A stretch of 52,890 bases of DNA from Candidatus Poribacteria bacterium (lineage in GTDB: Bacteria > Poribacteria > WGA-4E > WGA-3G). Below the pieces are notes generated by a model, which ran no database searches, was not told the origin of the DNA, and saw only the letters and a program-made list of their open reading frames with translations. This document shows, piece by piece, positions 38,099 through 42,676 of the stretch. The stretch's first letter is position 1, and every line of letters begins with the position of its first letter. The stretch spans positions 1 through 52,890 of the forward strand of contig JAJECK010000048.1 in the NCBI GenBank assembly GCA_022822085.1, in the 5' to 3' direction. The position numbers were made by a program, and so were the translations under genes.

Positions 38099-39163
38099 TT
38101 ATTCTTCTATCACATAGTTTTCATTCACATAACGTGCGATCAATTCAATCTCTTCCTCTTCAAGATAGAGTCCGTGTTCAATCATCCGATTGATAACTTC
38201 AGTTGTATCTTCTGTAGTTTCAGGCGGATAATCTTCTACATCAGTTATCGGATGGCATTGTGAGCATTTATCTTCAAAAAGTGCTTTTGCTTCCCCTTCG
38301 TCATACGTGTCTGTAATCACATCAGTTGCCTGTTCTACCTCCATTGCAACAGATGCCTTTACAGCTGCGTCTTTCGCAACATCGGTTCGTATCTGTTCCG
38401 CGCGCTGCTGTTTAACTGCGTTCTTGATATCAGGTGTAATTGCAATCAGATATGTAGATACGCTCCACTCCTCCTGTTCGGATATCGGTTCTCCAATCAC
38501 AGGTTTTATCGCCATCCGATGCACTAAACGAACCCAATCTGGTGGTGTCCGTGGTTTAGCAAGAATCGTCCGCAAATCGTGGCAAACAACACATTTCCGT
38601 TGTAACACATGGCGTCCCTCCCGCAACTTCCGTTTTGACGCAAGTTGATCTAACGGTGCCTGAGGGGGCAACTCAGCCGAATCTAATAACTGACGCGTTC
38701 TTGCAATCCCCGCATCACTAAACGCACCTGTCTTTGCTGTCAAGACAGTTTCATGGAATGAAAATGGCACGGACAACCCAATCAACAGATAAGTACATAT
38801 CAGTAAGCATACACCGATATACGGCATTGATTCCTCAAAATGCCGAAAAAAGCGAAGGATAACGACCTTCACTAAAATCAGCACACCGATCGTAATACCA
38901 AGCATCAAGTGTGCAACAGTACGCGGCGGTAATTCAACCTGATATGTCCACAACCGAGGCACCATGTACCACATCATAAAGAGATAGAGCAATGCATAAG
39001 CATAACCCAAGCAACGATGTAAGAGTATCAATGATCGTGGTGCTTCACTCTTATGTGTCTCTTTGTCAAATGGGTATCCCCATAACTTAAACATCAAGAA
39101 AACGGAAGCATTCGCTAATCCCAAAAATATCAGTCCAAATATTGCACTTGTTGATGTTGACAT
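38099..39163 (-). CDS. Membrane-anchored cytochrome with two CxxCH sites
   Basis: A 354-residue protein. The N-terminal half has four likely transmembrane helices (LIFLGLANASVFLMF, CLGYAYALLYLFMMW, HLMLGITIGVLILVKVVIL, YIGVCLLICTYLLIG) with histidines in or near helices, resembling a cytochrome b561-like anchor. The C-terminal half has two c-type haem motifs, KCVVCH and KCSQCH, separated by an Ala/Glu-rich helical linker. The layout suggests electron transfer from the membrane to the periplasm. It is tempting to pair it with the exported CxxCH proteins at 18.9 and 26 kb, but that is inference. Confidence 0.75.
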   Translation of the reverse strand: MSTSTSAIFGLIFLGLANASVFLMFKLWGYPFDKETHKSEAPRSLILLHRCLGYAYALLYLFMMWYMVPRLWTYQVELPPRTVAHLMLGITIGVLILVKVVILRFFRHFEESMPYIGVCLLICTYLLIGLSVPFSFHETVLTAKTGAFSDAGIARTRQLLDSAELPPQAPLDQLASKRKLREGRHVLQRKCVVCHDLRTILAKPRTPPDWVRLVHRMAIKPVIGEPISEQEEWSVSTYLIAITPDIKNAVKQQRAEQIRTDVAKDAAVKASVAMEVEQATDVITDTYDEGEAKALFEDKCSQCHPITDVEDYPPETTEDTTEVINRMIEHGLYLEEEEIELIARYVNENYVIEE

Positions 39164-39415: not shown

Positions 39416-40216
39416 TTACGCATCCAACGTAGGACGACTCAATCGCGAGTGATATGGCGGTTCCATAACTGCCCGTTGCCGTTCATTTGCCCATTCTGGT
39501 ATCGGATAAGCTGGCACATAAGCCAAGTTCCCCGCTGTATATCGCGTCAAAATTGAACGTCTCGGATGGTCTGCTGTCCACGGAAGTGTACCGTGCGTCA
39601 CCGCCTCTGTAAAAATAATGGCATCTCCAGCATCACAGACAAGTTGACGGATATGTTCCTGATGCTTCTGATAAAGTCGCATCTCTTGCGGACAAGGGTA
39701 GTTACTCTTATGACTCCCCGGTATAACTATCAATCCACCAGCACCCGGAGGCACATCGGTCAGTTGAATCGTCACAACTGTCAATCCATTGTGCATCCTA
39801 CCATCCCTAAAGATGTAATACTGATTTGGATCAAACCCCGGCCCAGATGAACCGTGAAAGATGAAACCTTCCGCACCTTTATCCATAGAAAGTAGGAACA
39901 TCTGATGATCCATACGGAAACCCTTACCCAATATTTCATTCAGATATGGTACAAGTGTTGGATGTGCCAGCATATCTCGGAATGGGTTACACCACGGTTC
40001 CTCCCATCCAAGCATTCCACCGAGTTCACCTCTACCAAATTCACCTTGCAATTGCTCAGAACCACCATCAAGCGTTTGCTCTTTTGAACGGACGTTCTGT
40101 TGATCAATATGTTTATCAATGGCTTCATTTGCCAACGCCACCTCTTCTGATGTCAACACATTTTTTACAACGATATAACCGTTCAGATCAAATAGATATT
40201 TATCATCAGCATTCAT
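39416..40216 (-). CDS. Phytanoyl-CoA dioxygenase (PhyH) family protein
   Basis: A 266-residue double-stranded beta-helix protein of the Fe(II)/2-oxoglutarate dioxygenase superfamily. Recognisable parts are FDLNGYIVVKNVLTSEE, the strand FIFHGSSGPGF with the proximal iron histidine (His121), GAGGLIVIPGSHKSNYP, and AVTHGTLPW with the distal histidine (His208). Arginines follow for 2-oxoglutarate binding (around 219-225). The canonical HxD motif reads HGS, so the carboxylate ligand is missing at its usual place. Adjacent on the same strand is a sugar-acid dehydratase-like gene 73 bases upstream, suggesting a catabolic operon. Substrate unknown. Confidence 0.85.
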   Translation of the reverse strand: MNADDKYLFDLNGYIVVKNVLTSEEVALANEAIDKHIDQQNVRSKEQTLDGGSEQLQGEFGRGELGGMLGWEEPWCNPFRDMLAHPTLVPYLNEILGKGFRMDHQMFLLSMDKGAEGFIFHGSSGPGFDPNQYYIFRDGRMHNGLTVVTIQLTDVPPGAGGLIVIPGSHKSNYPCPQEMRLYQKHQEHIRQLVCDAGDAIIFTEAVTHGTLPWTADHPRRSILTRYTAGNLAYVPAYPIPEWANERQRAVMEPPYHSRLSRPTLDA

Positions 40217-40289: not shown

Positions 40290-41417
40290 TTACACTGCAT
40301 ACGCAACAGATCCATCTTCACGCAACGGTGTCGTACCAGTATTCATCGGATGGAATGGTGTTTCTGCAATGAGATCATCGTTAATTTCAACACCCAACCC
40401 AGGAACATCAGGGATCGGAATATATCCGCCTTCCCGTTGATATGCAACTTTGTAGACAGCGAACGCATCCGATTCATCCGCTTTAGTGTATTCCTGTGTG
40501 ACAAAGTTTGGTATACTCGCGTCTAAATGTAGCGAGGCAGCTGTAATCACCGGACCGAGGAAGTTATGTGTAACAACCGCGCTGTGATATGCCTCCGCTA
40601 TCGCAGCGATCTTTTTACAGTGCGTCAGTCCGCCTGCTAAACCAACATCAGGACGCACATATTGCGGTCCTCCTACCTCCAGGAGTTCACGGAACTCCCA
40701 GATACTTACATTGCGTTCACCTAAAGCGAGAGGCGTTGTCATCCGTTTCGCTAATTCCGCTTGCGTTGTGATCGTGTCAATCTGAATCGGGTCTTCAATG
40801 AAATAGAGATTGAAAGGTGCTAATGCCGACTCCAACACAATACTATTCATCGGTGTCAGTTTCCGATGCACCTCAACAATCAGATCCAGATCAGGACCGC
40901 CACCATCTCTCGCTGCAGCAACAAGGTCGCGCGCTGTATTCACCAACCGATCCAATCCCATATCTTGAAAATTACCGACTAACGGGTCAAACTTCAGAGC
41001 AGTAAAACCCTCTTCTACGGCAGCTTTCGCCGCTTCAAACATCGTTTCAGGTGTGCCACCACCACCCAACAGATGCAACCGAATTTTATCCCGACAGTTT
41101 CCCCCAAGCAATTCCCAAATCGGCACATCAAAATATTTGCCCTTAATATCATGTAGGGCGATGTCAACTGCACTTATTGCCCCACTCAATGCAGTTCCCT
41201 TAAACGGACCCATTCGGTACAGGTGCTGCCAATGGTGTTCAATACGCAACGGATTTTGGCCAATCAGGTATTTCTCAAAAGTTTTTACCATCCGCTCCAC
41301 TGCTTCAGGATAACCCCAACACGCAGTTTGACCGATACCACTCAGACCTGTATCTGTCCAAATCCGAATCACGTAACCGTTTCCAATAAAAAACGACTCA
41401 ATCTTATCAATTTTCAT
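40290..41417 (-). CDS. Enolase-superfamily acid-sugar dehydratase (galactonate dehydratase-like)
   Basis: A 375-residue mandelate racemase/muconate lactonizing enzyme family protein. Metal ligands are visible in LIVEVH, FIEDP and ALGERN. The histidine two residues after the first ligand (EVH) and the later VVTHNFLGPV histidine are the arrangement known from D-galactonate dehydratase and related sugar-acid dehydratases. The exact substrate cannot be read. I set the start at ATG 41417, because GGAGGGTACT precedes it; the TTG at 41429 would add four residues. It likely forms an operon with the PhyH gene. Confidence 0.88.
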   Translation of the reverse strand: MKIDKIESFFIGNGYVIRIWTDTGLSGIGQTACWGYPEAVERMVKTFEKYLIGQNPLRIEHHWQHLYRMGPFKGTALSGAISAVDIALHDIKGKYFDVPIWELLGGNCRDKIRLHLLGGGGTPETMFEAAKAAVEEGFTALKFDPLVGNFQDMGLDRLVNTARDLVAAARDGGGPDLDLIVEVHRKLTPMNSIVLESALAPFNLYFIEDPIQIDTITTQAELAKRMTTPLALGERNVSIWEFRELLEVGGPQYVRPDVGLAGGLTHCKKIAAIAEAYHSAVVTHNFLGPVITAASLHLDASIPNFVTQEYTKADESDAFAVYKVAYQREGGYIPIPDVPGLGVEINDDLIAETPFHPMNTGTTPLREDGSVAYAV

Positions 41418-41549
41418 AGTACCCTCCAATGAATATTGTCTTTTCTACGCTTGAACGTATTGTAGCATAAGGCGTTGACAATTGACAATAGTCAAGCGAA
41501 ATTCTTGCATCCGCTTCAAATGACTTGCTTGAAATACCTTTATTTTCTG

Positions 41550-41578
41550 TTGAATTTGTGCCCATTTTATGCTACTCT
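41550..41578 (+). promoter_or_regulatory. Possible promoter of the Rpn-family gene
   Basis: TTGAAT and TACTCT are separated by 17 bases, with the coding start at 41600. The -10 match is weak. Confidence 0.35.
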
Positions 41579-41599
41579 ATATGTATATCATGGGCAGGA

Positions 41600-42676
41600 A
41601 TGAGTATGGCACAAGACACAACATCCAGAGAGCAAGAACTCCGAGAACTATATAAACCTATACTGACAAATTTTCAAGATAGAAGCATAAAATGGTTGTT
41701 AGAGGACAAAGAGAATGTGCGGGGTCTCATAGAAATCCTCACAAAAGAGTTGGCAGACCTGATTGATTTCAGTCAACTTGAGTTCCAAGATAGGACATCC
41801 ATGTCAAGCAAACTACGGGAACAAGTCTCGGATATGCTTTTCAGTGTGCCCTTCAAGAAAGGTTCTGAAACAGATGAACTTCTCATTTATATCTTGATAG
41901 AACATCAATCGACAGTAGATGTGTCTATGGGGTTCCGTTTGCTGTTTTATATGATGAATATCTGGGATGCCCAACGTCAAAGATGGGAACAGGATAACGT
42001 GTCAAAAAGCGAATGGCGTTTGCGTCCGATACTTCCCATCGTGTTTTATAGTGGGGATCGACGGTGGCATGTTCCGTTATCTGTCACAGCAATTATGGAT
42101 ATACCGGAAGTGTTGACTCGGTTCGTTCCCAATTTTGATACACTCTTTCTAAATGTCAAGAAGATAGAAACTACAGAACTTACGAAAACGGATCATCCTT
42201 TTGGATGGTTGCTCAAAGTGCTTCAGAATGAGAAGTCGGATAAGGAAATTATAAAAGAAGCATTAACCGAAGCGATTGCGTCCCTAAACACATTGGAATC
42301 GGAACAGGCGGAATGGAGAAAACGGGCAATTCACTATTTTGTAATGTTGATCACAAGTCGCCGTCCGTCTGGTGAGCATAATGAGTTGATAGATTTAGTG
42401 AATCAGCATTCAGAGGAGGAGGTAGAACTGATGGTAAAGTCAATGGCAGATGTGATGATGGAAAAAGGCATAGAACAGGGCAAAGCACAAGGCGAAATGG
42501 AAGCGAAACAGGTAGCCATCATAAAGTTGATGACGCATCAGTTTCCAGATGTCCCACATACTTTTGTTGAGGCGATACACGAAATTCAGGAGCGTGCCCG
42601 ACTTGACACACTGTTTGATCAGATTTTAACTGCAACATCCTTTGATGATATTGATTTGAATGGGATCGGTAGTTAA
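41600..42676 (+). CDS. Rpn-family (YhgA-like) recombination-promoting nuclease
   Basis: A PD-(D/E)XK superfamily protein of 358 residues: DELLIYILIEHQSTVD carries the ExQ part of the nuclease core, and LRPILPIVFYSGDRRWHVPL is a signature of the YhgA/Transposase_31 family. Rpn proteins are DNA endonucleases that raise recombination and often have variable C-termini. The end here is a charged helix (EKGIEQGKAQGEMEAKQ) followed by a small domain. I chose ATG 41600 (MSMAQDTTS), preceded by GGCAGGA; an ATG at 41525 would overlap the probable promoter. Confidence 0.85.
   Translation: MSMAQDTTSREQELRELYKPILTNFQDRSIKWLLEDKENVRGLIEILTKELADLIDFSQLEFQDRTSMSSKLREQVSDMLFSVPFKKGSETDELLIYILIEHQSTVDVSMGFRLLFYMMNIWDAQRQRWEQDNVSKSEWRLRPILPIVFYSGDRRWHVPLSVTAIMDIPEVLTRFVPNFDTLFLNVKKIETTELTKTDHPFGWLLKVLQNEKSDKEIIKEALTEAIASLNTLESEQAEWRKRAIHYFVMLITSRRPSGEHNELIDLVNQHSEEEVELMVKSMADVMMEKGIEQGKAQGEMEAKQVAIIKLMTHQFPDVPHTFVEAIHEIQERARLDTLFDQILTATSFDDIDLNGIGS

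What the first reader, a model, noticed from the sequence alone, without database searches (positions are those of the whole stretch)
39416..40216. PhyH protein lacks the Asp of the HxD iron motif
The proximal motif reads H-G-S (His121, Ser123), with the distal histidine kept (His208). In SyrB2-type halogenases loss of this carboxylate lets chloride bind iron, so this enzyme might be a halogenase, use another ligand, or belong to a PhyH branch with changed chemistry.
Basis: partly seen in the sequence, partly recalled or inferred. Interest (0 to 1): 0.5.

Follow-up and report, generated by a model that had tools for sequence, protein, structure and literature searches.

The report
Oxygenase lacking its iron-binding aspartate
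This bacterial enzyme of the PhyH oxygenase family really does lack the usual iron-holding aspartate, but so does a branch of its relatives that includes the structurally solved antibiotic-making enzyme HygX, so it is more likely an active two-histidine oxygenase than a chlorinating enzyme.

Summary
In detail: minus-strand ORF 39416-40216 is a 266-aa PhyH protein with H121-G122-S123, H208 and R219. It is neither a chance mutation nor an evident pseudo-enzyme. In 86 of 86 orthologous ORFs examined H-G-S-S-G is kept, with all four TCN serine codons used at position 123.

The halogenase reading is not supported. The closest solved relative by profile and by Foldseek is HygX, a sugar-antibiotic oxygenase that itself reads H-G-G and falls in the same branch when the motif columns are left out (SH-aLRT 96). 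In the window's genome 24 of 114 PhyH ORFs lack the acid, and 21 of the 24 lie in one branch. AspH shows that an HXG enzyme can hydroxylate. The gene follows a galactonate-dehydratase-like gene in 48 of 50 close relatives, suggesting a sugar-type substrate.

Lead: acid-less members mostly carry Glu four residues before the distal His (E204 here, also in HygX), possibly a relocated carboxylate. Counterexamples exist, the phylogeny-aware test is not significant, and no coordinates were available. Open.

The parts
39416..40216 (-). PhyH-family Fe/2OG oxygenase, 266 aa (P0001)
   Evidence: PF05721 E 6e-18; AlphaFold model mean pLDDT 85.2, pTM 0.85; top Foldseek match HygX, E 5.7e-17
39842..39856 (-). 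Codons of H121-G122-S123-S124-G125, the proximal motif without Asp
   Evidence: Translation; HGSSG in 86 of 86 orthologous ORFs
39605..39607 (-). Codon of E204, four residues before the distal His; candidate relocated carboxylate (inference)
   Evidence: Kept in 85 of 86 orthologous ORFs; in 29 of 31 rows flagged acid-less in the branch and 1 of 26 outgroup rows
39593..39595 (-). Codon of H208, distal iron histidine
   Evidence: Invariant in alignment A1; H in 113 of 114 PhyH ORFs of the genome
39560..39562 (-). Codon of R219 (H+11), expected to bind the 2-oxoglutarate C5 carboxylate (role recalled for the family)
   Evidence: Invariant in A1; R or K in 31 of 31, 8 of 8 and 26 of 26 rows
40290..41429 (-). 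Mandelate racemase/enolase superfamily gene, galactonate-dehydratase-like, just upstream on the same strand (TTG-start ORF as listed; an ATG lies a few codons downstream)
   Evidence: PF13378 E 3.7e-51; NCBIfam PRK14017 galactonate dehydratase E 1.2e-84 but below its cut-off, 284.6 of 311 bits; adjacent in 48 of 50 loci whose PhyH is 85% or more identical
38099..39163 (-). Downstream membrane protein with a cytochrome c-type C-terminal domain, conserved neighbour
   Evidence: PF13442 E 2.5e-6; found in 46 of 69 loci

Best explanation
An active Fe(II)/2-oxoglutarate oxygenase of a HygX-like branch of PhyH. Iron is held by two protein histidines, H121 and H208, with R219 anchoring 2-oxoglutarate; the third facial site, vacated by the loss of Asp at H+2, is filled by water or a second-sphere-held ligand rather than by chloride. 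The ferryl intermediate then hydroxylates or oxidises (possibly cyclises) a small polar metabolite, most likely a sugar or sugar-acid derivative handled together with the neighbouring galactonate-dehydratase-like enzyme. Shown: the sequence motif, its conservation, the fold match, the branch with HygX and the gene neighbourhood. Inferred: iron binding, activity, the nature of the third ligand and the substrate.
For: HygX is the best solved match by profile (E 1e-12) and takes the first six Foldseek ranks; in VIA-align it is tied with SptF (Z 21.5 against 21.7). HygX reads H102-G103-G104 with H206 (read off) and falls in the branch with SH-aLRT 96, motif columns left out. Purifying selection on H121, G122, S123, H208 and R219. 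21 of the 24 acid-less PhyH ORFs in the genome lie in one 23-row branch (SH-aLRT 98). AspH, a human HXG enzyme with two iron histidines, hydroxylates; FIH Asp-to-Gly keeps some activity (passages of PMC8252765). Neighbour galactonate-dehydratase-like. In more distant relatives, sugar-type genes lie nearby in some loci: xylose-isomerase-like in L085 and L086, epimerase in L088, GFO/IDH/MocA in L092, from nine flanking ORFs chosen by eye.
Against: No assay or metal-site structure. In prolyl 4-hydroxylase Asp-to-Gly or Ala abolishes hydroxylation (passages of PMC2767507), so absence of the acid is not neutral everywhere. The metal coordination of HygX could not be read: the PNAS paper is not held. 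HygX sits on a long branch (2.14) joined near another long row, so its place is unsure within the branch. HygX is at only 17-18% identity in the structural alignment. The substrate guess rests on neighbourhood; outside the close relatives the dehydratase gene is absent from the 19 loci below 85% identity except L098.
Confidence: 0.55

Rival explanations
1. Relocated carboxylate: E204, four residues before the distal His in the turn between two core strands, supplies the third iron ligand, giving an H...E-x3-H triad instead of H-x-D...H.
For: Among 114 PhyH ORFs of the genome, 21 of 24 acid-less ones have Glu or Asp at distal His -4 against 5 of 90 HxD ones; the 3 exceptions are HxH. Wider set after 80% redundancy removal: 39 of 45 against 11 of 99. 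E204 is the only acid conserved in the branch and rare outside it; D10, E25 and D154 are also acidic in the outgroup, in 8, 17 and 24 of 26 rows. HygX has it too (E202). In the model, strands 199-203 and 207-211 leave 204-206 as a turn. Within one sub-branch, HRD members lack Glu and HAS/HGGF members have it. Recalled, not verified: the same position in SyrB2 (Ser231) lines the chloride site.
Against: The association is mostly one branch: the independent-pairs sign test is not significant (median p 0.5; p 1 in the genome-only tree). HGGHKG members (three rows after redundancy removal) have neither acid nor Glu; the HADYG group has both Asp and Glu. No coordinates, so no distance.
Confidence: 0.2
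2. Radical halogenase: chloride binds iron in the vacant site, as in SyrB2.
For: HXG/A is the residue pattern used to flag such halogenases (passages of PMC12871659 and PMC11186838).
Against: The same preprint warns that HXA/G searches give false positives. HygX and AspH are HXG without halogenation. About 20 acid-less paralogues in one genome. SyrB2 is only a weak profile match (E 0.014). A conserved Glu beside the site would disfavour an anion there (inference). Sugar-acid neighbourhood.
Confidence: 0.07
3. Another third ligand such as H104 (a three-nitrogen site).
For: H104 is invariant in 86 of 86 orthologous ORFs and in 16 of 18 acid-less rows of the sub-branch, and is Arg in 38 of 38 HAD-type rows.
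Against: Two acid-less rows (L284, L285) have Arg there; it is not conserved across the wider acid-less branch (not listed at 75%).
Confidence: 0.06
4. A non-catalytic or non-metal-binding PhyH homologue.
For: One paralogue in the genome, L189_m402, has lost both histidines (N and Q), so dead copies occur in the branch.
Against: Both histidines and R219 are conserved under synonymous variation.
Confidence: 0.07

Closest known systems
HygX (hygromycin B biosynthesis oxygenase; PDB 4xc9, 4xca, 4xcb, 4zpi)
   Same: Fold (Foldseek E 5.7e-17), proximal H-G-G without acid, Glu at distal His -4, Arg after the distal His, same branch in the tree.
   Different: 17-18% identity in the structural alignment; H-G-G rather than H-G-S; a longer loop after the motif; antibiotic context (recalled) rather than a sugar-acid dehydratase neighbour.
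Human AspH
   Same: HXG...H with two iron histidines, active hydroxylase (passages of PMC8252765).
   Different: Not in PF05721 to my knowledge (recalled); different substrate class; no relation tested here.
SyrB2 halogenase (PDB 2fct)
   Same: Acid replaced at H+2 (Ala118; PMC2767507 passage), related fold.
   Different: Profile E only 0.014 over residues 83-184; acts on threonine (passage).
Ectoine hydroxylase EctD (3emr, 4mhr)
   Same: PhyH fold; profile E 1.6e-8 and 1.2e-7.
   Different: Has H-S-D and no Glu at -4; groups with HxD paralogues in the tree.

Membership tests
PhyH (PF05721) | Profile match above the curated cut-off | tested here: met
   66.3 bits against a cut-off of 22
PhyH (PF05721) | H-x-D...H iron triad | tested here: not met
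   H121-G-S123...H208; 90 of 114 PhyH ORFs in the genome meet it
HygX-like branch | Groups with HygX apart from HxD PhyH proteins | tested here: met
   39-row branch, SH-aLRT 96, quick tree, motif columns removed; HygX on a long branch
HygX-like branch | No acid at H+2 and Glu at distal His -4 | tested here: met
   HGS and E204; HygX HGG and E202
HygX-like branch | Metal coordination as in the HygX crystals | not testable with these tools
   No coordinates returned; paper not held
HygX-like branch | Oxidative cyclisation of a saccharide | not testable with these tools
   Needs enzyme and substrate
Fe/2OG radical halogenase | HXG/A in place of HXD/E | tested here: inconclusive
   Acid absent, but the residue is Ser, not Gly or Ala
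Fe/2OG radical halogenase | Close kinship with characterised halogenases | tested here: inconclusive
   SyrB2 E 0.014; no other halogenase chain recognised among 45 sequence hits at E <= 10; no tree with halogenases was built
Fe/2OG radical halogenase | Halide bound to iron and chlorinated product | not testable with these tools
   Needs assay or structure

The most novel reading that the evidence does not exclude
The branch has moved the iron carboxylate: a Glu in the turn before the distal His (E-x3-H) replaces the Asp of H-x-D, a facial triad wired differently, which freed the H+2 position to drift (G, S, A, V) and which in HygX and Poribacteria goes with bulky sugar-type substrates.
Probability: 0.18. 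Interest if true: 0.65.

Novelty: new member of a known kind. Interest (0 to 1): 0.35.

Why it matters
HXG/A is used as a flag for radical halogenases. A branch that supplies about a fifth of the PhyH ORFs in this genome (23 of 114) would raise that flag mostly wrongly if it works like HygX. If the Glu does take over as iron ligand, it would show a way for a 2-oxoglutarate oxygenase to rewire its metal site in evolution, testable in HygX itself, for which crystal structures already exist.

Tried and rejected
Halogenase: rejected as the leading reading (see rivals). D129 (of P-G-F-D) as substitute ligand: kept in 86 of 86 orthologous ORFs, but not listed as an acid conserved at 75% or more in the acid-less branch. 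H104 as substitute: weakened by L284 and L285.

A first association of Glu -4 with acid loss looked very strong (21 of 24 against 5 of 90); sampling more of the phylum brought counterexamples and the phylogeny-aware test did not reach significance, so it is kept as a rival only.

Known misalignments: one row, L190_p1353, has its proximal motif out of register and is flagged 'acid'; it reads HVV. Read by hand, one search's figures would be 30 of 32 acid-less rows with Glu/Asp and 3 of 7 acid-bearing rows. In some searches HMMER does not set HygX H102 on H121; the MAFFT alignment does.

Rows dropped: one search left out L288_p1279, L290_m1342 and L259_m610 as fragments or adjacent genes, and removed redundancy at 80% (219 to 144 rows). 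No SyrB2, WelO5 or BesD chain was seen among the 50 rows shown by Foldseek or VIA-align; those lists are capped, so this excludes nothing. Papers on HygX metal coordination: four searches gave none that describe it; the key paper is not held. SyrB2 Ser231: searches did not confirm it.

Full report
What is there. The ORF at 39416-40216, minus strand, encodes 266 residues with a PF05721 match over residues 9-220. The AlphaFold model (38-row alignment, mean pLDDT 85.2, pTM 0.85) is a double-stranded beta-helix, but the stretch after the motif, residues 121-140, averages 53-54, so the metal site is not modelled well; the tools give no coordinates.

Is it real and selected? From 69 loci, 86 ORFs at 60% identity or more keep HGSSG without exception, and 85 of 86 keep E204, H208 and R219; the other one is truncated. 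All four TCN codons occur at S123 and several codons at each of the other motif positions, so this is protein-level constraint. Orthologues at E <= 1e-90 are in 71 of 84 genomes of the phylum. The record titles of the 69 loci are mostly Candidatus Poribacteria, with some Latescibacterota, one Gemmatimonadota, one Armatimonadetes and one unplaced bacterium. Poribacteria are known for very many PhyH genes (passages of PMC3909097); the window's genome gives 113 PF05721 matches.

How unusual is the missing acid? I fetched the stretches around those matches and recovered 113 PhyH ORFs, 114 with the window's. 90 have Asp at H+2; 24 lack an acid: 11 Gly, 4 Ala, 2 Ser, 2 Val and 4 His after a proximal His, and one with Asn in place of the proximal His. 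In a tree built without the motif columns, 21 of the 24 fall in a 23-row branch (SH-aLRT 98); the other 3 are HxH types elsewhere. The other two members of the branch have Asp: L163 (HAD) and L167 (HRD).

What is the branch? Its solved relative is HygX: profile E 1e-12, Foldseek ranks 1-6, VIA-align Z 21.5, tied with SptF at 21.7. HygX reads H102-G103-G104 and E202-x3-H206, and falls within the branch (SH-aLRT 96, quick tree, long branch). HygX belongs to a group of oxygenases tied to orthosomycin saccharide linkages (passage of PMC8234114; PMC8210684 passage). I recall, but could not check, that its authors reported a variation in metal coordination. So the missing acid has a precedent in the nearest characterised relative, and AspH shows hydroxylation by an HXG enzyme (passages of PMC8252765). 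Against a neutral view of acid loss, P4H variants D414A and D414G have neither hydroxylase nor halogenase activity (passages of PMC2767507).

A candidate replacement. In the acid-less set, Glu or Asp at distal His -4 is found in 21 of 24, against 5 of 90 HxD ORFs. No other acid is both conserved in the branch and rare outside it. To see whether this is compensation or shared descent I sampled 108 further matched ORFs from the phylum. After redundancy removal: 39 of 45 acid-less rows have it, 11 of 99 HxD rows do. Within the L167/L176 sub-branch, HRD members lack it and HAS and HGGF members have it, as compensation predicts; but HGGHKG members have neither acid nor Glu, and the HADYG group, nested among acid-less rows, has both. 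The independent-pairs test gives no significance (median p 0.5; p 1 in the genome-only tree). I therefore give the relocated-carboxylate reading 0.2.

Neighbourhood and substrate. Directly upstream on the same strand, 73 bases away, lies an enolase-superfamily gene nearest to galactonate dehydratase (below that model's cut-off; best solved match 3rr1, putative D-galactonate dehydratase, E 7.8e-62). It is adjacent in 48 of 50 loci whose PhyH is 85% or more identical; of the two others, L047 lies at the locus edge and L033 has 4.3 kb of upstream sequence without it. In 18 of 69 loci the PhyH gene is duplicated in tandem. In more distant loci the dehydratase is not found, but sugar-type genes occur near some (nine ORFs chosen by eye, not a systematic survey). 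A sugar or sugar-acid substrate is the best guess, inferred.

Verdict. Observation confirmed. Interpretation partly supported: altered PhyH branch yes, halogenase not supported. Most likely an ordinary but uncharacterised HygX-like two-histidine oxygenase; the conserved Glu is the part worth a structural look.

Noticed in passing
L040 4133-4930, L054 4105-4902 and 16 other loci: Tandem second copy of the PhyH gene in 18 of 69 loci; in most of the poribacterial pairs seen one copy reads GHTFHGSSG and the other GFIFHGSSG. The window has one copy here.
   Followed up: partly
L180_m451, L131_p1480, L134_m1322, L153_m561: Four PhyH paralogues in the genome have His at H+2 (HSH, HSH, HQH, HMH), which could make three-histidine metal sites.
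   Followed up: no
L163 and orthologues (L228-L257, L278-L283, L286): HADYG group with Asp at H+2 nested among acid-less rows: possibly an Asp regained after loss, with Glu -4 kept.
   Followed up: partly
L189_m402: PhyH paralogue with both iron histidines lost (N and Q), likely non-catalytic.
   Followed up: no
L260-L265, tandem pairs: Tandem pairs of one HRD copy (no Glu -4) and one HGGHKG copy with neither acid nor Glu.
   Followed up: partly
41525-42676: Transposase_31 (YhgA-like, PF04754) gene beside the locus.
   Followed up: no
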